Assembly: GCA_002281485.1 (NCBI GenBank)
Contig: NCGF01000004.1
Span: 82,386 to 146,385, forward strand
Direction of reading: 5' to 3'
DNA from: Sphingomonas sp. 28-66-16
GTDB taxonomy: Bacteria; Pseudomonadota; Alphaproteobacteria; Sphingomonadales; Sphingomonadaceae
DNA: 64,000 nt
Every line of letters begins with the position of its first letter. Position 1 is the first letter of the stretch. The notes beneath the pieces were generated by a model. The model worked only from the letters and a program-made list of their open reading frames with translations. It ran no database searches and had not been told where the DNA came from. A program made the position numbers and the translations under genes. Positions 24,419 to 36,179 of this stretch are shown one piece after another.

Positions 24419-25825
24419 TCATTCCAGGCCGAGCGCCTTCAGATCGACTGCCGCTGCCGCGAGCTCGGCCCGAGCCACGATCTGGCGATACGCCGCGTCG
24501 AGCTGGCGGACGCTGGCGTCTGCGGCGGCTTCTTCGCGGACGTTTACCAGGAAAAAGTCGCTGGCGCCCATGGTGAAGCGTCGGCGCTCGGCCTGCGCCA
24601 TCTTCGCGGCGCGATCCTGCTCGGCTTCGACCAGCGTCCGCAACCGTTCGGTTGCCTGCACGTCGATCGCGAGCGCATCGAGTGCGTTGACGATCGACTC
24701 CTCGGTCTGCTGGCGACGCCGCCGAAGCGCGTCTATCTCGGCGCTCGTCGCGTCGATTCGCCCCTTGGCGACACGGCGCTGAAGTGGCAGCGAGAAGCTC
24801 AGGCCCACCTTTGTCTCGGTGCCGACCCGCGATCGTCCTCCCAACCCGATCGGTCCGATATCTTGCGAGGCTTCGAGCTTCAGATCGAGCCGGGGACGGA
24901 GCGCGTTGCGATCGAGGTCGAGCCTGGTCGCTGCCTGATCGAGGCGCAGATCGATCTGCGCCAGATCGGGGCGCGCCGCCAGCATCGCGCGCGGGTCGCC
25001 GATCGGCCGCGGGATCGCGACAAGGCTGTTCGGCAGGCGCGCCGGGTCTGGCTGCATCGGTGCGCCACGGGCATCGCGCAAGAATAGTGACAGGGCATTC
25101 GCCGCCGTCGCCAGCTCCTGTTCGGCGCGCGCCACCAGCGTTTCGCGGCGCAGGATGTTCTGTTCATTCTCGGTGAGGATGATACTCGGTCGTGCGCCGA
25201 GCTCGACCTGGCGCTCGAATCCCGTCTGGCGCTGTCGCGCGAGGTTCAGCAGGTCGCGATAGACGCTGAGGCGAAGCCCTGCCACGACCCACTGGTTATA
25301 GGCACCGATCGCCCGGCGCTGGACCGCGATGGCCGTCAACAGCCGCTCGGTCTCGGCGATGTCGACATCGGTGCGTGCCAGCAGGCGCCCGGCCCGGCGA
25401 TCGTCGATCGCCCGGTCGCGCAGCAGCGACAGCAACGCCCCGACCTTGATCTCGCCGAGCTGATTGGTGAACCGGTCGTCCTCATAGATCGGAAAATCGC
25501 CGCGCGACACGCGGTAGCCGCCGTACAGGCTGCCGCCCCAGTTCTCGATCGGGCGCGTGATCGTGCCGGCGGCATAGCTGCCGTCATAATAGCCCGACAG
25601 CCGCGTCTCCGCTTCGCCCTTGACGATCGTGTCGAACGCGCCCTCCGCCGAAAGCGCCTTGCCTTGGGCCTGGCGCACTTTGGCGACCGCTTCGAGGATC
25701 TGCGGCACGTGGCGACGCGACGACTGCAGCACCTCGTCAAGCGTCAGCGGTGCTTGGGCCGCTGCGGGGAGGGGCAGCAGCGCGGCAGCAATCAGGGCGC
25801 AAAACGCCACGAGGCTATTTCGCAT
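24419..25825 (-). CDS. TolC-family outer-membrane efflux protein
   Basis: 468 residues. Signal peptide MRNSLVAFCALIAAALLPLPAAAQA, then LTLDEVLQSSRRHVPQILEAVAKVRQAQG, the start of the first TolC repeat. The rest is helix-rich with two repeats (LRLSVYRDLLNLARQRQTG; ARPDLAQIDLRLDQAATRLDLDRNALRPRLDL). It forms a trimeric outer-membrane and periplasmic channel. It is the last gene of a three-gene minus-strand operon and overlaps the HlyD gene by 11 bases. Only an RND, MFS or ABC inner-membrane partner could power it, and here that partner is the ABC-like protein with the degenerate ATPase domain. Confidence 0.9.
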   Translation of the reverse strand: MRNSLVAFCALIAAALLPLPAAAQAPLTLDEVLQSSRRHVPQILEAVAKVRQAQGKALSAEGAFDTIVKGEAETRLSGYYDGSYAAGTITRPIENWGGSLYGGYRVSRGDFPIYEDDRFTNQLGEIKVGALLSLLRDRAIDDRRAGRLLARTDVDIAETERLLTAIAVQRRAIGAYNQWVVAGLRLSVYRDLLNLARQRQTGFERQVELGARPSIILTENEQNILRRETLVARAEQELATAANALSLFLRDARGAPMQPDPARLPNSLVAIPRPIGDPRAMLAARPDLAQIDLRLDQAATRLDLDRNALRPRLDLKLEASQDIGPIGLGGRSRVGTETKVGLSFSLPLQRRVAKGRIDATSAEIDALRRRRQQTEESIVNALDALAIDVQATERLRTLVEAEQDRAAKMAQAERRRFTMGASDFFLVNVREEAAADASVRQLDAAYRQIVARAELAAAAVDLKALGLE

Positions 25826-26876
25826 CCGACGATCCCTTGGCGGGCGCGGCCGCCTGATCGTTGCCGGCCGCCGTTGCGGGATATTGCAACGGAAAATCGT
25901 TGAGCTGGCGCCACAATTCATAGCCGGCCGAGACGGTATCCATCAACACCCAGCCGCGCACGTTGGCGCCCAGCCGGACATAGGGTTCCTTCGGCCATGG
26001 CGGCCGGTCAGGCGCGGGCTCGATCAGAATGCGAAACAGCCCGTTTGCCGACGCCGACAGGTCGATCGTGCGGACGCGGCCGTCGAACATTCCTTGCGCG
26101 ACCGAGGGCCAACCGCTGAACTGGATCGCGGGCCACCCTTCGAACGCCAGGCGCACGCGTCGGCCGGGTCTGATCAGCGACACGTCTCGGCCATCGACAT
26201 AAAGCGCCACCACGCGCGCCGATTCCTCGGGCGCGAAGGTCGCGAGGATATCGCCCGCGCTCACCATCGTCGCGCCCGCGCCCGCGTTGATCGTCATGAT
26301 CCGGCCGGCGCGCGGCGCCCGCACGACCTGTGCCGACTGGCGGCTGAGATCGACGTTGACCTTGTTGATCGCGGCGCGGCTGGCAGCGATCTTGGCCCTA
26401 TAATCGGCGACCTTGATCTGCGCGGCCTCATAGTCGCGCCGCGCCGCGAGGCCCTCTCGGAACAGCGTGCCGGTGCGTTCGACATCGAGCATCGCGGTGC
26501 GGGCGGCTTGTTCGGCGGCGGCGATCTCCGCGAGCTTCTGCGCGCGTTCGGCGCGGATCCTGTCGAGCAGCAACGGATCATTGTCGATGATGCGTGCGAT
26601 CGGATCACCCCGCTTCACTTGGCTGCCGTCGGTCACATACCATTCGTCGATCCTGCCGGGGACGAGCGCGGTGACGTTTTGCACGCGATCTCGCGGATCG
26701 AGCGCGATCACCGATCCGGTTCCCGGTGCGGTCTGCACCCATGGAATGTAGACGAGCCCGATCAAGGCGATGACGATGCCGAGCCCGAGCATTGCCGCCA
26801 GCGCCCGCAGCACGTTCGGCGTGCGCAGTTCGCGCAATGTCTTGAAGCGGCCGAGCTCGTCAGCGTGCGCCTGCAT
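25815..26876 (-). CDS. HlyD-family periplasmic adaptor
   Basis: 353 residues. One N-terminal membrane span (LAAMLGLGIVIALIGLVYIPWV, residues ~27-48) is followed by a lipoyl half-motif (VTALVPGRIDEWYVTDGSQVKRGDPIARI), a long coiled coil (~100-190), the second lipoyl half (VVRAPRAGRIMTINAGAGATMVSAGDIL) and beta-barrel segments. This is the membrane-fusion protein that links an inner-membrane exporter to TolC. The ATG at 26876 overlaps the ABC gene's 3' end by 17 bases. Confidence 0.9.
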   Translation of the reverse strand: MQAHADELGRFKTLRELRTPNVLRALAAMLGLGIVIALIGLVYIPWVQTAPGTGSVIALDPRDRVQNVTALVPGRIDEWYVTDGSQVKRGDPIARIIDNDPLLLDRIRAERAQKLAEIAAAEQAARTAMLDVERTGTLFREGLAARRDYEAAQIKVADYRAKIAASRAAINKVNVDLSRQSAQVVRAPRAGRIMTINAGAGATMVSAGDILATFAPEESARVVALYVDGRDVSLIRPGRRVRLAFEGWPAIQFSGWPSVAQGMFDGRVRTIDLSASANGLFRILIEPAPDRPPWPKEPYVRLGANVRGWVLMDTVSAGYELWRQLNDFPLQYPATAAGNDQAAAPAKGSSDAK

Positions 26877-28563
26877 CGCGCGCCTCCCCGTCGCCGCGCA
26901 ACGCCTCAAAGGCGGCCTTGTCCGGCGCGACCCCCTGACGATCGGCGCCTAGCCAGAGAAAGCCGTCAAGCGCCGGTGCCTGCTGGCGGTCGGTGAAATA
27001 GATGATGCTTCCCGGAAGGTCGCGCATCGCCTCGAACATCGATTGCAGCGCGTCACGCGAGATCATGTCGTACAGCGGCGACATCACCAGCAATTTCGGC
27101 CGCGCCAGTATCGCACCGGCGAGCTTGAGCCGCATCATCTCGGTGATCGACAGCGGCGACCCGGTCGCCGCGAGCACGGTATCGAGCCCGCCAGGCAGCG
27201 CGCCGACGCGATGATCGAGCCCGACGATCGTGATCACCTCCATCATCCTCTGATGGCCGCCATCGGGCGCACAGAGTTCCAGATAGTCGCGGATCGAACA
27301 CTCGACGATCGTCGGCCGGTCGAGCACGATCACGTCGCTGCGCAGCTGATAGGCGTCGAGCGCTCCAAGTTCGGCGCCGCCAAGCGTGATGAACCCGCGA
27401 TCGGGGACGCTGTGCCGCTTGAGCAGCAGCGCGAAGGCGCGCTGGGTTTCGGGATCGGCACCGGCGATCAGCCGCGCGCGATCGGGGATCGTGCAGGTGA
27501 TCGAAACGGCGCCGAGCCGGACGTCCGAAAAAATCAGATCGCCCGACGTATTGCCGGCGCCGCTCAATCGACCCGGAGTCTCCTGGGGAATCGCATAGAG
27601 CAAGCCGAGTTCCTCGACCGCGACGACGAGGTCGTAGAAGATTTCGAGATATGGCCCGAGCTGGGAGACCCCATAGAAGATGCTCGAGAGGATCAGCTCG
27701 GCCGCGACCAGCTGGCCGATCGACAGCTGGCCCTGGATCACCAGCCAGCCACCCATCGCCAGCAGCCCCGCGCTCGCAATGGCATACAGGATGAGAAAGG
27801 CGACGGTCTGGGTGAAGCTGTAGCGCATGTGGCGGCGATAGGTGCTCACGTAGCGCGCGGTCTGCGCTTCCGAACGGTCGATCGCGTAGCTCAAATGGCG
27901 GCTCGACTTGTAGAAGCCGTTCGATGCCCCGACGCTCTCGAGCCAATGTGCAGTATCATATTTGGCGTGGCTGAGCTCGACCGCAGTCGTCATCGCCCCG
28001 CGCGACCAGAGCCGCCAGATCGCCCAGGTGAGCAGGATGAACAGCAAATTGAACCCGAGAAAGAACGGATGGTAGAAAGAGGTGACGACGAAGCCGACCG
28101 CCGATTGCAGCAGGATGGTGAACAACCCGATGAGCAGCGATGGCACCGCCTTTTGCAGGTTCATCACTTCGAAATAGCGGTTGAAGAGATCGCCCTTGCG
28201 GTCGTCGCCGAAAAACGGGTTACGGGCATGGACGGCGCGCAGCGTAATCTCGGCAACCAGCCGTGCGAAGATGTGCTGCCGAAACAGCTCGAGCAGATAG
28301 AAGCGCAACGCGCTGAGCACTGCCGACAGCATCAACAGCGCGAACAGGATCGCCGCCAGGGTGAACAATGGCGCCGGCAGCGCGGTATTCGCGACGCTGT
28401 TGATCAGCATCTGTACCGAGATCGGTGTCGCCAGCGACAAGAGGCTGATGCCGATGCCGTAAATGATCGCCAGCACGAACAGCCCGCGCTGCGGCGCGAG
28501 GATCGGCTCGGCCCAGCGAAACACATCGCGGAGCCGGACGCCGCCAGAAGGTGCCTCAGCCAT
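26860..28563 (-). CDS. ABC exporter-like protein with degenerate nucleotide-binding domain
   Basis: 567 residues with type I exporter layout: six spans at ~20-310 (for example GLFVLAIIYGIGISLLSLATPISVQML) and a C-terminal NBD-like part at ~345-545. Every catalytic motif of that part is altered. Walker A is replaced by AGADPETQRAFALL (no Gly-Lys-Ser/Thr). The Q-loop has lost its Gln (QLRSDVIVL). The signature LSGGQ reads LSITEM. Walker B plus Glu reads LLVMSPLYD, and the H-loop reads YFTDRQ. ATP hydrolysis is therefore unlikely. The fold is kept over its full length with no frameshift, which argues against recent decay. Operon with HlyD and TolC genes. Cargo and energy source unknown. Confidence 0.85.
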   Translation of the reverse strand: MAEAPSGGVRLRDVFRWAEPILAPQRGLFVLAIIYGIGISLLSLATPISVQMLINSVANTALPAPLFTLAAILFALLMLSAVLSALRFYLLELFRQHIFARLVAEITLRAVHARNPFFGDDRKGDLFNRYFEVMNLQKAVPSLLIGLFTILLQSAVGFVVTSFYHPFFLGFNLLFILLTWAIWRLWSRGAMTTAVELSHAKYDTAHWLESVGASNGFYKSSRHLSYAIDRSEAQTARYVSTYRRHMRYSFTQTVAFLILYAIASAGLLAMGGWLVIQGQLSIGQLVAAELILSSIFYGVSQLGPYLEIFYDLVVAVEELGLLYAIPQETPGRLSGAGNTSGDLIFSDVRLGAVSITCTIPDRARLIAGADPETQRAFALLLKRHSVPDRGFITLGGAELGALDAYQLRSDVIVLDRPTIVECSIRDYLELCAPDGGHQRMMEVITIVGLDHRVGALPGGLDTVLAATGSPLSITEMMRLKLAGAILARPKLLVMSPLYDMISRDALQSMFEAMRDLPGSIIYFTDRQQAPALDGFLWLGADRQGVAPDKAAFEALRGDGEARDAGAR

Positions 28564-28758: not shown

Positions 28759-29001
28759 TCAGCTGCTCGGAAGCGATTTCTGCTCGGGCATCTCGGCAGG
28801 CCGCTGCTCGAGAGCACTGGCGTTCGCCGTTTCTTTGCGATCGCTGCACCGCATCACGGTGGTGATCAGTCCCTTGCCCGAGGGAAGCGGCAGGTGGTGG
28901 AGCGCGCAGCGTGGCGCGGCATCCGCCGATGACCGGTCGACAGCCTGGGCAGGCGCGGCGATCAGCGCCACCAGCGGCGCCAGAGAGGCGAGAATGATCA
29001 T
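28759..29001 (-). CDS. Small exported protein of unknown function
   Basis: 80 residues: signal peptide MIILASLAPLVALIAAPAQA with a likely cut after AQA (residue 20). The mature part has 60 residues, two Cys (C32, C52) that could form a disulfide, and a polar C-terminal tail. GGGA lies nine bases before the ATG. No family recognised. It lies upstream of the exporter operon on the same strand but is cut off from it by a terminator, and is divergent from the OmpR-type regulator. It could be periplasmic, a sensor input or exporter cargo; none of these is shown. Confidence 0.6.
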   Translation of the reverse strand: MIILASLAPLVALIAAPAQAVDRSSADAAPRCALHHLPLPSGKGLITTVMRCSDRKETANASALEQRPAEMPEQKSLPSS

Positions 29002-29164
29002 GTTCGGGTCCCTTGATAGAGGCGGCAAGATCCGCCTCGTCGTGATCGGGGAGTTACGCGAGGGGCTTTTCCCGAGTTTCGCTGCATTGTGAGAAATCAT
29101 TGCCGGCGGTACTGTCAGGGTGCTGTCCATTGACGCGCCGAATCAGCAGACCTACCGGAAGCGC

Positions 29165-29878
29165 ATGACGCCGCCGCCAACCATCATTCTGGTCGAGGAC
29201 GATCCCGGCCTGCGCACGCTGACGGCGCGGGCGTTGCAGGAAAATGGCTATACCGTCCGCACGGCGGGGGCGGCGCCCGAAATGTGGCTCGCGCTGGAGG
29301 CGGGCCCCGCCGATCTCGTTCTGCTCGATATCATGCTGCCGGGCACCGACGGCCTTGAACTCTGCCGGCGATTGCGACAGCAGACCGACGTGCCCATCAT
29401 CTTCACGAGTGCGCGCGGCACCGAAACCGATCGCGTCGTCGGATTGGAAATCGGCGCCGACGATTATCTCAGCAAACCGTTCGGGACGCGCGAACTCATC
29501 GCGCGGGTGCGTGCTTTGTTGCGCCGCTCATCGGTCGAACCGCGCGAGGAACAGCGCGGCAAGGGCGTGATTCGCTTCGACGGCTGGACTGTCGCGCTGG
29601 CGCGCCGCGAGCTGACATCGCCGACCGGCGCGTCGGTTGAACTGACCGGCGCCGAATTCGATCTGCTGACGAGCCTGCTCGATTATGCCGGCCGGGTCAT
29701 CGCGCGCGAGCGCCTGATCGAATTGTCGCGAACGCGCGTCGGCGACAGCTCCGACCGGAGCGTGGACGTGCTGGTGAGCCGGCTTCGCCGAAAGCTCTCG
29801 GTCGACGGGCATGAGGCGCCGATCGTCACGGTTCGCGGCGTCGGCTATATGTTCAATGCGAGCGTCACACGCGAATGA
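29165..29878 (+). CDS. OmpR-family response regulator
   Basis: 237 residues: receiver domain with acidic residues E11/D12/D13, phosphoacceptor Asp55 (LVLLDIMLPGTDG) and Lys in YLSKPF; then a winged-helix domain ending SVDVLVSRLRRKL and VRGVGYMF, which is typical of the OmpR group. GGAAG lies close before the ATG. Its stop overlaps the kinase ATG by 4 bases. It probably binds the ~160-base gap to the divergent small-protein gene and may also control the exporter operon, but no repeat site was found. Confidence 0.95.
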   Translation: MTPPPTIILVEDDPGLRTLTARALQENGYTVRTAGAAPEMWLALEAGPADLVLLDIMLPGTDGLELCRRLRQQTDVPIIFTSARGTETDRVVGLEIGADDYLSKPFGTRELIARVRALLRRSSVEPREEQRGKGVIRFDGWTVALARRELTSPTGASVELTGAEFDLLTSLLDYAGRVIARERLIELSRTRVGDSSDRSVDVLVSRLRRKLSVDGHEAPIVTVRGVGYMFNASVTRE

Positions 29879-31182
29879 GCCGGTTTGCCATTCGCCCGTT
29901 CGGGCTGATTGGACAGATTGTCGCCATCTTGTTGATCGCCGTGGTCGCCGAATTTGCGGCGAGCACCATCCTTTATGAGCGCGCCAGCGAATTTTCGGTG
30001 CGTGACGACGAGGCCCGACGGCTCGGCGAGCACCTCGTCGTCGCCAGACAACTTCTCGAAAAGGCGCCGCCCGCGCGCCGCCCGTCGATCGCGGCGGCAC
30101 TGTCGACCGATCATTACGAAACCGGCTGGGCGCCGCGTCCGCCATCGAGGCCGGCGGACACCCTGACGCTCATCCGCAGCCAGATCGTCGCGTGGGAGCC
30201 ATCGCTCGCCAGTGCCGATCTTCGCCTCGCGCGCCGCGGCGATCCGATCGGCACTCGGATAACCGGCGGTCTGGTGCTCGCCGACGGCAGCTGGCTGTCG
30301 TTTCGCACGCTGCGGGGGGTCGGCAGCCAGGATTGGTGGCGCGGTCGCGTGCTCATTTCGGCGCTGCTCGCGCTGCTCGTGATCGGATCGGCGAGCCTGC
30401 TGGTCCGATCGACGCTGCACCCCCTGCGGCGCCTGGCACACGCGGCCGATCGCTTCGGCGCAGCCGCGCCCGAGCGAGTCGAGGAGGGCGGCCCGATCGA
30501 GATTCGTCAGGTGATCACCGCGTTCAACCGCATGCAATCGCGCATACAGCGACTGATCGCCGAGAGAACCCAGGCGCTGGCGGCCGTCGGGCACGATCTG
30601 CGCACGCCGCTCGCGCGATTGCGGCTGCGAACCGACGGGGTCGGCGACGCCGATCTGCGGGCAACGATCGGCGGCGACATTGCCGAGATGGAGGCGATGG
30701 TCACGTCGTTGCTCGCCTATTTGGGCGGCGAGACCGATCCAGAGATACCGACGCTCACGGACATTGCGGTACTGTGCACCACGCTGGCCGACGATGCCGC
30801 CGATCGGGGGCGGGCAGTGACTTATGTCGGCCCCGATCATTGCGAGCTGGCGGTTCGCCGGAGCGGCTTGAAGCGCGCCATTTCGAACCTGCTCGAGAAC
30901 GCGCTGCATTATGGCGACTCGGCCTGTCTCACCCTCGAAGCGCGCGACGGATCGATCCTGCTCGTGATCGACGATGATGGCCCCGGCATACCAGACGAAT
31001 CGCTTGCCTCGGTCGTCGAACCCTTTGTCCGTCTCGATGCGGCGCGGCGACGCGATACCGTGGGGCTGGGGCTTGGTCTGGCGATCGTCGCCCGCATGGT
31101 CGCGGTCGAGGGCGGGACGTTCGGGCTCGCCAACCGGCCCGAAGGCGGGTTGCGGGCGACCATCGAATTGCCCCGCCTCTGA
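29875..31182 (+). CDS. Sensor histidine kinase, HAMP type
   Basis: 435 residues. Two spans (LIGQIVAILLIAVVAEFAAS, ~10-30; LISALLALLVIGSASLLV, ~160-178) flank a ~130-residue periplasmic sensor. Then HAMP (TLHPLRRLAHAADRFG), the dimerisation helix with the phospho-His240 in GHDLRTPLARLRLR, and the ATPase domain (N box NLLENALHYG, G1 DDDGPGIP, G2 GLGLGLAIV). It is the partner of the overlapping OmpR-type regulator. The signal is unknown. Confidence 0.94.
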   Translation: MSRFAIRPFGLIGQIVAILLIAVVAEFAASTILYERASEFSVRDDEARRLGEHLVVARQLLEKAPPARRPSIAAALSTDHYETGWAPRPPSRPADTLTLIRSQIVAWEPSLASADLRLARRGDPIGTRITGGLVLADGSWLSFRTLRGVGSQDWWRGRVLISALLALLVIGSASLLVRSTLHPLRRLAHAADRFGAAAPERVEEGGPIEIRQVITAFNRMQSRIQRLIAERTQALAAVGHDLRTPLARLRLRTDGVGDADLRATIGGDIAEMEAMVTSLLAYLGGETDPEIPTLTDIAVLCTTLADDAADRGRAVTYVGPDHCELAVRRSGLKRAISNLLENALHYGDSACLTLEARDGSILLVIDDDGPGIPDESLASVVEPFVRLDAARRRDTVGLGLGLAIVARMVAVEGGTFGLANRPEGGLRATIELPRL

Positions 31183-31242: not shown

Positions 31243-32109
31243 CTATCCGATCAGACTGGTGACGACCGGGTTGGGAAATTTTCGGCTGACCGTGATCGCG
31301 AGGAATTGTTCGGCGATGCCCGGCAAGCGCTCCAGCTCGATCAGCGACCCGTCCGCGAGCTCGTCCTTGACGACGATCGCCGGCAGCACCGCGAGGCCGG
31401 CGCCTTCGCGCGCGAGCAAGCGCATCATCGCCATGTCGTCGACCTCGGCGGCAATCTGGGGACTGAGCCCCAGCCGGTCGACCAGGGCGTCGAAGCCCGT
31501 CCGGACGCTGCTGCCGATCGTCGGGACGATCACCGGGTGCGCGTCGAGCCACGCTGCCATGCCCGCGCCGGGGGCGCCCATTCCCGGCATGCCGACGAGG
31601 CTGACTGGCTGCTCCGACAGCCGGTGGGTGACATAGGGCGTCAGCGTATCGGCCGGGACCGGCTGGTTGGTGAGCACCGCGTCGAGCCCGTGCGCTGCCA
31701 GGGACGCCAGCAACTCGCCGGCGCTGCCCGAGCGCAGGACGATGTCGATATCGCCACGGCCGAGGATCGGTCGCAGGAAATCGATCTGAAAGTTGCGCGA
31801 CAGCGTCGCCAGCGCGCCGATCCGGACCGGTTGGCGCGCGACTCCGGTCCGCCGCAACGTGCCGACCAGATCGCTTCCGGTCGCAAAGATCGAATCGGCA
31901 TGGTCGAGCGCGATCCGCCCGGCTTCGGTGAGCACCATCTGGCGACTGCGCCGCTCGAACAACGGCTGGCCCAGCCGGTCCTCCAGCTTCCGGATCTGTA
32001 CCGACAGCGCCGATTGCGAGACGCCCAGCCTGACGGCGGTGCGCGTGAGATTGCCGTCATGCGCGACCGACCAGAAATAGCGCAGATGATTATAATTGAG
32101 CTCGGCCAT
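31243..32109 (-). CDS. LysR-type regulator, divergent from the DAB operon
   Basis: 288 residues. The N-terminal helix-turn-helix is LNYNHLRYFWSVAHDGNLTRTAVRLGVSQSALSVQIRKLE, followed by a periplasmic-binding-fold effector domain. The N-terminus (NYNHLRYFWxVA) is of the NhaR subtype. DAB loci elsewhere are often paired with LysR regulators, so control of dabB-dabA is the natural inference. The ATG at 32109 lies inside the palindromic operator, which suggests strong self-repression. An upstream in-frame start at 32145 would place the operator inside the coding region and is less likely. Confidence 0.9.
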   Translation of the reverse strand: MAELNYNHLRYFWSVAHDGNLTRTAVRLGVSQSALSVQIRKLEDRLGQPLFERRSRQMVLTEAGRIALDHADSIFATGSDLVGTLRRTGVARQPVRIGALATLSRNFQIDFLRPILGRGDIDIVLRSGSAGELLASLAAHGLDAVLTNQPVPADTLTPYVTHRLSEQPVSLVGMPGMGAPGAGMAAWLDAHPVIVPTIGSSVRTGFDALVDRLGLSPQIAAEVDDMAMMRLLAREGAGLAVLPAIVVKDELADGSLIELERLPGIAEQFLAITVSRKFPNPVVTSLIG

Positions 32110-32134
32110 ATCGTTCTTATAAACAGAACGATAT
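32108..32134. promoter_or_regulatory. LysR operator palindrome between the regulator and dabB
   Basis: ATATCGTTCT-N7-AGAACGATAT: perfect 10-base arms. Its core TTC-N9-GAA satisfies the LysR T-N11-A rule. It covers the first two bases of the regulator gene and ends 74 bases before dabB. The only strong palindrome in the divergent gap. Confidence 0.75.
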
Positions 32135-32208
32135 CGACCAAACAATGAATTTTATGCAGGGGCAGACGCCGCGTATCGGTTTCGCGATCGATTACGCAGG
32201 AGAGGTCG

Positions 32209-33768
32209 GTGCCGTTTTCCCTTATTCCTTCAGCCGCGCCCGTCGCTTTGCTGGCCGCAGCGACGCTCGGCCATCTTTTACCGGGGCGCTTCCCTGCGTC
32301 CGCCAAACGACTTTGCGAGGCGCTGGCGATGGTGGCGATGCTCGCCGCCATCGCTTCACTCGCCTTGCTCGTGGTGTACGGCCCGGTGACGAGTCCACTG
32401 ATCGGCGCCGGCGGGATCGGGCTGGCGCTGCGGATCGATGCGGTGAGCGCACCGCTGCTGCTGCTCATCGCCTTCATCGGCTGGGTGGTGATCCGCTATG
32501 CCTCGGTCTATCTCGACGGCGAGGCGCGCGAAGGGCGGTTCATGGGCTGGCTGTGCGCCACGCTTGGCTTCGTCATGCTGATGGTCAGCGCGGGCAATCT
32601 CGGCCAGCTGGTGCTTGCCTGGATCGGCACCAGTCTGACACTGCACCGCCTGTTGCTCTTCTATCCCGAGCGCGCCGCCGCGCAGCGGGCTGCGCGCAAG
32701 AAATTCGTCGTCGCGCGGGCCGGCGATGCGGCGCTGCTCGGCGCGACGCTGCTGCTCTGGATTGGGCATGGTACGGGGGATATCGCCACGCTGACGGCCG
32801 CGATCGTGCGTGACGGTGCCTCGCGCTTCGACACCGGCGCGGCGGCGCTGCTCGCGGTCGCAGCGATGCTCAAATCGGCGCAGTTTCCCCTGCACGGCTG
32901 GCTGACCGAGGTGATGGAGGCGCCGACGCCGGTGTCGGCGCTGCTCCATGCCGGAGTCGTCAATGCCGGCGGCTTCGTGCTGATCCGCTTCGCCGATCTG
33001 ATGCTGACCGCCCCCGCCGTGCTCGCCGCATTGGTCATGATCGGCGGGCTGAGCGCGGTGATCGGCGGGCTGGTGATGCTTACCCAGCCGGCGGTCAAGA
33101 CCTCGCTCGCCTGGTCGACGATCGCCCAGATGGGGTTCATGCTCATGCAGTGCGGGCTAGGACTGTTCGCGCTCGCGCTGCTCCATCTCCTCGCGCATTC
33201 GCTCTACAAGGCGCACGCCTTCCTCGCCTCGGGCGGCGCGGTCGAGCAGATTGCCGCCGCCGCGCGGCCGGGGCCGGTCGCGGTGCCGAGCCTGCGCGCC
33301 GTCGCGCGATCCTTTCTCGCTGCGCTCGGCATCTATGTCGCGATCGGGCTTGCTTTCGGTTTTCATGACACATCCCCTCAGGCGGTCGCGCTCGGCGCGA
33401 TCCTCATTTTCGGGATCGCCTATCTGTTCGCACAAGGCCTGGCCGATGCCGCGCCGCGCGCGCTGGCGCGGCGAATCGTCGGCTACGCGGTCGCCGCGTC
33501 GATCGGTTATTTCGTGCTCCATCTGATCGCGATCGCGCTGACCGCAGGCACGTTGCCGCCGACGCCCTCACCCGACGCGCTCGGCTGGGTATTGATTGCG
33601 CTGGCGGTGCTGAGTTTCGGCGCGGTCGCCTTTGCCCAATCGACGTTCCCGCTCTGGTCGGGGCATCCGGCCGTCGCCGGGCTGCGCGTCCACCTCGCCA
33701 ACGGGCTGTACGCCAATGCGTTGTTCGATCGGCTGCTCGGCAGCTGGCGCCTGCAGGGAGAAAAGTAA
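32209..33768 (+). CDS. dabB: DabB: proton-conducting subunit of the DAB inorganic-carbon transporter
   Basis: 519 residues, about 14 membrane spans, of the complex I NuoL/Mrp antiporter family. The conserved Lys and His stretches are [35 protein letters not shown] (~220-255) and [20 protein letters not shown] start with AGGAG seven bases upstream. Its last base is the first base of the dabA ATG. With DabA it is known in other bacteria to couple the proton gradient to one-way hydration of CO2 to bicarbonate. No other nuo or mrp genes are present, which supports DabB over a complex I subunit. Confidence 0.88.
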
Positions 33769-36179
33769 TGCACGGTCGGATCATGCCAAACGCGGAGGGT
33801 TTGTCTCCCGCGATCGACGCTGCTGCGGAAGCGGCGATCAACGCGATTCCGCCGCTCTGGCCGCTGGCGGCGACCGTCGCGGTCAATCCGTTCCTCGGAC
33901 AGGCGACCGAGCCGCTCGATCGGGCGGCCGCCCGGCTGGCGCGGACAGCGGGGGCGGCGATCACCATGCCGCGCGGATGGTTCGCCGATCGCATCGACGA
34001 GGGCCGGATCACCGATGCCGATCTTGCTGCCGCGCTGGCGGCAAGTGACTGGGCGGGCAAGCCCGCGACCACCGACGCGCTGAAAGCAGCGACCGCGCGC
34101 CCACTCGCGTCACCGGTCGCCGTGCCGACGATCGCCGATCTGGCGGCGGCTGCCTCAGGGATCGACTGGCCGGGCATCATCGCCGATCGCATCGGCCATT
34201 GGGCGGCGGGGTATTTCGATGCGGGACAGGCGCTGTGGCGGGCCAATAGCGCGCGGGGCGCCTATGTGGCGTGGCGCGAGACCGCCACGCATGATCTGAC
34301 GCCGGAGATTCTGGGCCTGCCGGGCTTCGCCGCCTTCGTCGCCGCTGCCCCCGAAACGGCACGCGGCGCGATCGGTCGCTCCACCGACGCGCTTGGGCTC
34401 GCCGAGGCTGCGCTCGAGGGGGCCTTTACCCGGCTGCTCACGACGCTTGGCGGTTGGGCGCAGCTGGCGCGTTATAACTGCTGGCAGGCCGAGCTTGGCG
34501 GCACAACCGATGACACCGCGCTCGATCTGCTCGCGATCCGGCTGCTGTGGGAGGAGGCGCTGTTCGAACGCTACCGGCCCGATATCGCCGCAGTTTGGCC
34601 AGCCGCCTGCGCCGCCCACGCCGAAGCGATCATGCCAGGCGACGACCAGCGGATCGGTGCCATCCTTCAGGAAGCCGCCGAGCGCGCCGGGCAGCGCACG
34701 CTTGCATTAACGCTTGCGGCACCCGCAACCGCCCAGCCGGCCGCACCCGCTTTCCAGGCCGCCTTCTGCATCGACGTCCGTTCCGAAGTGTTTCGCCGGG
34801 CGCTGGAGAGCGTCGATCCGGGCGTGCAGACCCTAGGGTTCGCGGGCTTTTTCGGGCTCGCGACGGCGCATCGCCGGTTCGCGTCCGACGTCGTCGAGCG
34901 CCGCTTGCCGGTCCTGCTCAACCCCGGGGTCGCCAGCGTCGCGGGGAGCGCGGCGACGTTGCCCGCCGATCAGGCTGCGCGGTTTCGCGCCCGTGCGACA
35001 CGAGCCTGGGGGCGGTTCAAGCTCGCGGCGGTGTCGTCCTTCGCCTTTGTCGAGGCGGCTGGGCCGCTCTACGGGGGCAAGCTGGTGCGCGATGCGCTCG
35101 CGGCGACCAGACCGGACGTGCCGGGCGGGCCGCCGCCCCAGCTGGACCCGCCGCTGGCACTGGATGACCAGCTCGATGCCGCCGAGAAGATTCTCCGCGC
35201 GATGTCGCTGACCGAGCGATTCGCCCCGCTGGTGCTGATCGCCGGCCACGGCGCGCGCGTCACCAACAACCCCCACGCCAGCGCGCTGCAATGCGGTGCC
35301 TGCGGCGGCTATTCGGGCGAGGTCAATGCGCGGTTGCTCGCGGGACTGCTCAACGCGCCAGCGGTTCGTGACGGGCTGCGTCATCGCGGAATCGACGTTC
35401 CTGCGACCACCTTGTTCGTCGGCGCGCTGCACGACACCACGAGTGACGACGTCACATTATATGATGGCGATTTCCCGGCGCCGTCGCACCGCGACGCCTT
35501 GAGCCGGCTCCGCGACATGCTGGCCCGGGCGGGCGCGCTGGCGCGCACCGAGCGGGCGCTGCGGCTGCCGCGCGCGACGTCGGGCGGGGCGATCGAGGGG
35601 CGGACCCGCGACTGGGCCGAGACGCGGCCCGAATGGGGTCTCGCCGGCTGTCAGGCTTTCATCGCCGCGCCGCGGGCGCGCACGCTCGGCAAGCCGCTCG
35701 CCGGGCGCGCCTTCCTGCATGATTATGATTGGCGCGCGGACCAGGATTTCGGGGTGCTCGAGTTGATCCTGACTGCCCCCGTGGTCGTCGCGAGCTGGAT
35801 CAGCCTGCAATATTACGGGTCGGCGGTCGCGCCGGCACTATTCGGTGGTGGCAACAAGCTGCTCCACAATGTCACTGGCGGGATCGGCGTGGTCGAGGGC
35901 AATGGCGGCACGCTGCGCGGTGGTCTGCCCTGGCAGTCGGTGCATGACGGGGCAGCGCTGGCGCACGAGCCGCTGCGGCTGACGGTGTGCGTGGAGGCAC
36001 CGTGCGCCGCGATCGGCGATATTCTCCGGCGCCACGATCATGTCCGTGCGCTGTTCGACAATCGCTGGCTCCATCTGCTGGTGCTCGACGATGCCGGGCA
36101 GGTGGCGTGGCGCTATGCCGGCAACGGCGAATGGGAAGCGGCGGCTGGATCATTGGCAGCGCCAGTGCCGGCCATCTGA
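33768..36179 (+). CDS. dabA: DabA: carbonic-anhydrase-like subunit of the DAB transporter (DUF2309)
   Basis: 803 residues, the usual UPF0753/DUF2309 length. The four zinc-site residues known from Halothiobacillus DabA have clear counterparts: Cys334 and Asp336 in [17 protein letters not shown], His494 in [11 protein letters not shown], and Cys509 in ALQCGACGG. The His-to-Cys spacing of 15 is the same as in the characterised protein. The start follows dabB with a one-base overlap. In heterotrophs such systems supply bicarbonate for carboxylases at ambient CO2. A third, zinc-ribbon gene begins two bases after the stop. Confidence 0.92.

What the first reader, a model, noticed from the sequence alone, without database searches (positions are those of the whole stretch)
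24419..28563. Three-gene exporter operon whose ABC protein has lost every ATPase motif
The sequence shows a TolC channel, an HlyD adaptor and a full-length type I ABC exporter frame in one overlapping operon. In the ABC protein, Walker A (no Lys), Q-loop, signature (LSITEM), Walker B (LLVMSP) and H-loop are all altered, yet the fold and reading frame are intact. From family knowledge such a homodimer cannot hydrolyse ATP. Inference: it is a conserved tripartite machine powered by something else (an ATPase in trans, or the proton gradient), or a gated channel. A decayed gene would be expected to show stops.
Basis: partly seen in the sequence, partly recalled or inferred. Interest (0 to 1): 0.78.

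Follow-up and report, generated by a model that had tools for sequence, protein, structure and literature searches.

The report
ABC exporter family without its ATPase
A bacterial pump that looks like an ATP-driven exporter has lost the parts needed to use ATP, yet relatives keep this altered form together with its two partner genes, so it probably runs on another energy source.

Summary
Window 24419-28563 (minus strand) holds an overlapping operon: ABC exporter, periplasmic adaptor, TolC-type channel. The ABC protein has a recognisable but catalytically dead nucleotide-binding domain (NBD). This is not local decay. None of 62 aligned family sequences (window plus 61) has a Walker A motif; in the 61 whose frame covers them, the Walker B Asp and first signature Gly are always lost. 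The substitutes are patterned. The family is monophyletic against 10 intact exporters, occurs in four Sphingomonadales families, one family outside Alphaproteobacteria and on plasmids. The operon was contiguous in 35 of 35 regions examined. NBD dN/dS is below 1 in all 23 usable pairs. The transmembrane domain is better conserved than the NBD in 1827 of 1830 pairs; ten intact exporters show the reverse in 44 of 45. A family-specific Glu (E289) in TM6 is kept in 61 of 61. Best explanation: an ATP-independent tripartite exporter driven by an ion gradient, its NBD kept as a structural or gating part. Energy source and substrate are inferred, not shown. New variant of a known kind.

The parts
26860..28563 (-). 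ABC-exporter-like protein, 567 aa: transmembrane domain plus catalytically dead NBD
26929..27588 (-). degenerate NBD (residues 326-545)
27433..27462 (-). former Walker A (residues 368-377, GADPETQRAF; K to Q, S to R)
27697..27699 (-). codon of E289 in the TM6 hydrophobic stretch, Glu in 61 of 61 family members, Asn in 7 HlyB-like controls
28069..28071 (-). codon of H165 between TM3 and TM4 (periplasmic side inferred), His in 61 of 61 family members
25815..26876 (-). periplasmic adaptor (HlyD/RND_mfp type), likely start ATG 26876 (ORF open from TTG 26909)
24419..25825 (-). TolC-family outer membrane channel (OEP), likely start ATG 25825 (ORF open from 25921)

Best explanation
The operon encodes a tripartite inner membrane - periplasm - outer membrane exporter whose inner-membrane part is derived from a HlyB-like ABC exporter but no longer uses ATP. 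Shown: catalytic motifs are lost across the family, the frame, fold and operon are kept, and both domains are under purifying selection, the transmembrane domain most. Inferred: the homodimer still works by alternating access, driven by the proton (or sodium) gradient through acidic residues in the transmembrane domain, with invariant E289 in TM6 as the first candidate; the NBD is kept as a nucleotide-free dimerisation or gating element held by new charged residues (R375, D415-R416, D499). The substrate is probably a small toxic compound or metabolite, since no cargo gene was seen to travel with the operon and a LysR regulator often does.
For: 0 of 62 with Walker A; Walker B Asp and first signature Gly lost in 61 of 61; K to Q/E/D in 58 of 62, S/T to R in 56, Q-loop Q to D in 53. 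One side of a 100/100 branch from 10 intact exporters. NBD dN/dS below 1 in 23 of 23 pairs. Domain conservation inverted relative to intact exporters. E289, H165, K201, R416 and D499 in 61 of 61, none of these letters at those places in the controls. Operon contiguous in 25 of 25, 3 of 3 and 7 of 7 plasmid regions. Precedents (passages or sections seen): LmrA-MD and MsbA-MD transport on ion gradients without an NBD, and the TM6 glutamate E314 matters in LmrA; SbmA, an ABC-type transmembrane fold, is proton driven; HlyA secretion is reported to need the proton motive force too.
Against: No transport, ATP-binding or energy measurement was met for this family. Laboratory precedent cuts both ways: full-length MsbA and LmrA with a Walker A lysine deletion (dead but present NBD) lost ethidium efflux or had strongly inhibited ion transport, unlike the NBD-less forms, so a dead NBD can block. 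In LmrA-MD, E314A removed the pH-gradient dependence but not the membrane-potential dependence. The E289 position was not aligned to E314. SbmA-type transporters lost the NBD and coupling helices; here the NBD remains. The NBD changes faster than the transmembrane domain (dN/dS medians 1.6 to 2.6 times higher). The full-length model was poor (pLDDT 50.5), so no charge network could be checked.
Confidence: 0.42

Rival explanations
1. Passive or ligand-gated conduit: the dead exporter is a regulated channel or an assembly scaffold that lets substrate run down its own gradient into the adaptor and TolC channel.
For: ATP motifs are lost while adaptor and channel are kept; needs no energy source. 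CFTR shows that an ABC fold can be a channel (own knowledge).
Against: Strong conservation of the transmembrane core, including an invariant Glu in TM6, is more than a passive pore needs (inference); an open inner-membrane conduit would leak.
Confidence: 0.23
2. ATPase in trans: the protein pairs with an intact ABC half-transporter encoded elsewhere, as in heterodimeric exporters with one degenerate site.
For: Degenerate NBDs are known in heterodimers (TmrAB, TM287/288; PMC8277102 passages). The window's genome has other ABC exporters, intact in the two frames read.
Against: Known degenerate partners keep enough to form one good site (own knowledge); here Walker A, first signature Gly and Walker B Asp are gone in 61 of 61. 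One match per positive genome at strict cut-offs (scored candidates only); next match in the own genome is 34 bits against 1242. In 35 regions an intact-NBD search met, besides the family itself, only an ABC ATPase about 5 kb from the operon in L094 and a UvrA gene upstream in L065. A distant partner was not tested for.
Confidence: 0.14
3. Non-canonical nucleotide use: the domain still binds a nucleotide or another ligand through its new motifs and works as a sensor or slow engine.
For: The substitutes are patterned (Q/E-R, D-R, LS-x-x-E, FD), under selection, and the ABC fold appears kept. The second signature Gly is kept in 8 of 61, Walker B Glu in 2, the H-loop His in 4.
Against: Loss of the P-loop Gly-Lys-Ser/Thr and Walker B Asp removes known phosphate and Mg contacts (own knowledge).
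Confidence: 0.13
4. Gene decay in progress, kept by chance or by selection on the downstream genes.
For: One of 62 copies (L031) has a broken frame inside the NBD; the NBD changes faster than the transmembrane domain.
Against: dN/dS of the NBD is below 1 in 23 of 23 pairs; the same altered motifs recur in two classes and on plasmids.
Confidence: 0.03

Closest known systems
HlyB / type I secretion ABC exporters (TIGR01846; PDB 7sgr)
   Same: Best sequence relative over both domains; adaptor and TolC-family genes adjacent here
   Different: No N-terminal C39-like domain, no ATPase motifs, adaptor not of HlyD type by model score, no cargo gene seen
SbmA/BacA (SLiPT) proton-driven peptide transporters
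   Same: ABC-exporter-type transmembrane fold working without ATP (inferred here)
   Different: SbmA imports, has no NBD or coupling helices and carries extra TM0 helices; no adaptor and channel operon (own knowledge)
Truncated LmrA-MD and MsbA-MD
   Same: Exporter transmembrane domain without a working NBD; acidic TM residues matter
   Different: Laboratory constructs of ATP-driven transporters with the NBD removed, not a natural family with a dead NBD in an operon with adaptor and channel
Heterodimeric exporters with one degenerate site (TmrAB, TM287/288, BmrCD)
   Same: Degenerate NBD in an ABC exporter
   Different: They keep one consensus site and a partner subunit (own knowledge); here all core motifs are lost and no partner was found near the operon
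Blastomonas fulva 'HlyBD2-OMP2' (PMC9505733, passages seen)
   Same: Three genes of like size and order in Sphingomonadaceae, described as an ABC pump; probably this family
   Different: Sequence not compared here; the passages seen do not mention lost ATPase motifs

Membership tests
Type IV ABC exporter (ATP-driven) | ABC_membrane transmembrane domain | tested here: met
   36.8 bits, cut-off 28; 27 of 27 members of A2 match at E<=0.01
Type IV ABC exporter (ATP-driven) | Walker A, Q-loop, LSGGQ, Walker B, H-loop | tested here: not met
   ABC_tran not found in the window protein, weak in 8 of 27 members (best E 6.5e-05)
Type IV ABC exporter (ATP-driven) | ABC NBD fold | tested here: met
   Foldseek and VIA-align matches of a middling-confidence NBD model
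Type I secretion system | adaptor and TolC-family channel encoded with the ABC protein | tested here: met
Type I secretion system | HlyB and HlyD model scores above cut-off | tested here: not met
   HlyB 113.3 of 725.55; HlyD 48.7 of 208.65
Type I secretion system | protein cargo gene nearby | tested here: inconclusive
   no gene cluster but LysR holds a recurrent place beside the operon in 25 regions; cargo could lie elsewhere
SbmA-like peptide transporter (SLiPT) | no NBD | tested here: not met
   NBD kept
SbmA-like peptide transporter (SLiPT) | proton-coupled transport | not testable with these tools
   needs biochemistry
Heterodimeric exporter with degenerate site | intact partner subunit | tested here: inconclusive
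   none beside the operon in 35 regions; partners elsewhere in the genomes not excluded
Heterodimeric exporter with degenerate site | one consensus composite site possible (intact signature on the dead subunit) | tested here: not met
   first signature Gly lost in 61 of 61, second kept in 8 of 61

The most novel reading that the evidence does not exclude
A natural, ion-gradient-driven tripartite exporter made from an ABC exporter: the ATPase domain was turned into a nucleotide-free latch with its own conserved charge pattern, while a new transmembrane Glu took over energy coupling. It would be an ABC-derived counterpart to RND and MFS tripartite pumps and the natural version of the LmrA/MsbA truncation experiments.
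Probability: 0.33. Interest if true: 0.86.

Novelty: new variant of a known kind. Interest (0 to 1): 0.64.

Why it matters
ABC exporters are defined as ATP-driven, and the idea that their transmembrane domain can run on ion gradients has rested on engineered LmrA and MsbA and on SbmA. A natural family with a full-length but ATPase-dead exporter, fixed in an operon with an adaptor and outer-membrane channel, makes that question testable in its native setting. It also shows that records naming these genes 'ABC transporter ATP-binding protein' (plasmid hits H1, H5, H7, H8, H14) are misleading.

Tried and rejected
Decay: rejected on dN/dS and recurrence of the same motifs. ATPase partner beside the operon: looked for with one intact NBD (L055) by tblastn at E<=1e-6 in 34 loci plus the window; besides the family's own NBDs it met an ABC ATPase about 5 kb from the operon in L094 and, directly upstream in L065, a gene that Pfam shows to be UvrA. 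Structure: the full-length model from 11 close sequences was poor (pLDDT 50.5) and not used; the NBD-only model was better but too weak to test the proposed charge contacts; a dimer was not attempted, since the tool folds single chains. Linking E289 to LmrA E314 by position was not done because LmrA was not fetched. Literature: searches for degenerate or dead ABC exporters and for Sphingomonadales HlyD/TolC/ABC operons listed no paper that I recognised as describing this family, except PMC9505733, which probably describes one copy as an ordinary ABC pump (passages); most listed papers were seen as listings only. A Zymomonas paper (PMC11989028, passages) concerned other pumps, and PMC12003926 (passages) gave nothing on this family. 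PMC8277102 (passages; only its first 300,000 characters are held) named degenerate sites in heterodimers.

Results against the reading: Walker A deletions in full-length MsbA and LmrA blocked or strongly reduced transport; the NBD is less conserved than the transmembrane domain; one copy (L031) is broken; the operon is sparse (27 of 249 family genomes, 28 of 196 order genomes, own included; of listed same-genus genomes, own included, 2 of 5 and 4 of 14); nothing measures energy or substrate. On checking, confidence went from 0.45 to 0.42 and the novel case from 0.35 to 0.33 because of the Walker A deletion results.

Rows dropped or mended: L031 from identity, tree and dN/dS counts. OUT_L003 proved to be a cut copy of OUT_L002: the 11 control rows are 10 distinct proteins, and the pair control is given (44 of 45), not (53 of 55). 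dN/dS covers 36 of the 62 sequences (Sphingomonadales only), and 607 of 630 pairs were left out because synonymous change was too high. L031's H-loop letter comes from sequence after the frame break and is not counted here.

Full report

Distribution. At E<=1e-40, 27 of 249 genomes of the family have one match each, own genome included; at E<=1e-30, 28 of 196 in the order, in four families (f1, f3, f5, f6). In the class sample 3 of 289 have it, all Sphingomonadales; the fourth match, G452, is an intact HlyB-like exporter (L055). In the phylum sample of 299, six copies score 596-884 bits and the next best match 133 bits. Three of the six lie in one family of another class (f180); within a sample of that family 9 of 118 genomes carry it. 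Ten further loci came from a scan of named genomes (65-83% identity). Fifteen plasmid records have it, of Novosphingobium, Sphingobium, Sphingomonas, Croceicoccus and Sphingopyxis.

Motifs. In an alignment of 62 family sequences (window plus 61) and 11 control rows (10 distinct intact exporters) the Walker A Lys position reads Q38 E17 D3 K2 R2 and the next position R in 56; no copy has Gly-Lys-Ser/Thr in that region. The Q-loop Gln reads D53 N5 E3 H1. In the 61 copies whose frame covers them the first signature Gly is never kept, the second in 8; the signature Ser in 45. The Walker B Asp reads S32 T13 N12 G3 A1, the Glu position Q26 P23 and others, E kept in 2 and D in 1. The H-loop His reads N32 and others, H kept in 4. 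The controls keep Lys, Gln, Asp and Glu. Seven plasmid copies, the seven examined of 15, are dead in the same way. So the loss is old and shared, and the replacements are patterned rather than random.

Clade and selection. The tree puts 61 family members (L031 left out) on one side of a 100/100 branch from 10 intact exporters (the joining branch is long and the exact sister is unsure). Transmembrane identity exceeds NBD identity in 1827 of 1830 family pairs (means 0.560 and 0.391); ten intact exporters show the opposite in 44 of 45 pairs. dN/dS (Nei-Gojobori, 23 of 630 pairs with unsaturated synonymous change, among 36 Sphingomonadales sequences) is below 1 in every pair for both domains: medians 0.136 (transmembrane) and 0.354 (NBD); in the 11 closest pairs 0.066 and 0.108. 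The NBD is thus selected, less tightly than the membrane part. One copy, L031, has a broken frame inside the NBD.

New invariant charges. In 61 of 61 members: E289 in TM6 (Asn in the 7 HlyB-like controls, Leu or Val in the rest), H165 between TM3 and TM4, K201, R416 just after the Q-loop and D499 near the former D-loop; K480 in 60 of 61. E289 lies within the TM6 hydrophobic stretch of the window protein.

Neighbourhood. ABC, adaptor and channel are contiguous in 25 of 25 regions (24 chosen loci plus window), 3 of 3 examined of the 9 f180 copies and 7 of 7 examined of 15 plasmids. Beyond them a LysR regulator recurs in 13 of 25 regions, directly upstream of the ABC gene in 12. Two other clusters occur in 9 regions each (mixed acyl-CoA enzymes; mixed sensor proteins) without a fixed place. 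Of the LysR genes beside the operon I scanned five from Sphingomonadales (two chromosomal loci, three plasmids; all nearest OxyR, 168-205 bits, cut-off 329) and two from f180 (both nearest NhaR, 190 and 198 bits, cut-off 219), all below cut-off. No cargo gene and no exporter ATPase was seen to travel with the operon.

Mechanism. Shown: a conserved ATPase-dead exporter family fixed with an adaptor and channel. Inferred: alternating access without ATP. Ion coupling is the leading idea because exporter membrane domains can do it: LmrA-MD and MsbA-MD transport on ion gradients without an NBD, and E314 in TM6 of LmrA is needed for proton-coupled drug transport (PMC6155054, PMC2704374, PMC4979069; passages). 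Against it, two of these papers (PMC2704374, PMC4979069) report that a Walker A lysine deletion in the full-length proteins strongly reduced or abolished transport, so a dead NBD can also act as a brake. SbmA runs on protons naturally (PMC13316013; abstract and three sections). HlyA secretion is reported to need the proton motive force as well as ATP (PMC5018854, PMC3034196; passages). A trans ATPase is less likely because the dead subunit lost its signature as well, one match per genome was found at strict cut-offs and no partner gene is near; a distant partner is not excluded.

Known status. Public plasmid records carry the genes as 'ABC transporter ATP-binding protein' or 'ABC transporter transmembrane domain-containing protein' where annotated. 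A Blastomonas fulva paper describes 'HlyBD2-OMP2' with genes of 1659, 1053 and 1503 nt nearest to N. aromaticivorans (PMC9505733, passages); this is probably the same family, not verified by sequence. The searches listed no paper that I recognised as about an ATPase-dead tripartite ABC exporter; that covers only the held library and those terms.

Noticed in passing
window 32209-36179 (+): NuoL-like gene (383 bits, cut-off 380) followed by a DabA gene (PF10070, 842 bits): probably a DAB inorganic-carbon system, with a LysR nearest NhaR (31243-32145 -, 112 bits, cut-off 219) before it.
   Followed up: partly
L097 (plasmid pHAL16) 1362-9069: A DabA gene lies directly upstream of the ABC-adaptor-channel operon, with a LysR after it and a carbonic anhydrase nearby. 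Seen near the operon in two loci only (here and the window).
   Followed up: partly
window 28759-29130 (-): Small ORF with an internal signal-peptide-like stretch between the operon and a response regulator/histidine kinase pair (29120-31182 +); no Pfam match.
   Followed up: no
L067 (same gene as L029): ABC reading frame open for 978 codons, far upstream of the usual start.
   Followed up: no
L031: The only family copy met with a broken frame, inside the NBD; the membrane part is open and an adaptor match (residues 2-343) follows.
   Followed up: partly
L100 1452-6583: His-Xaa-Ser radical SAM maturases hxsB/hxsC and an S8 peptidase lie upstream of the operon on a Sphingobium plasmid.
   Followed up: no
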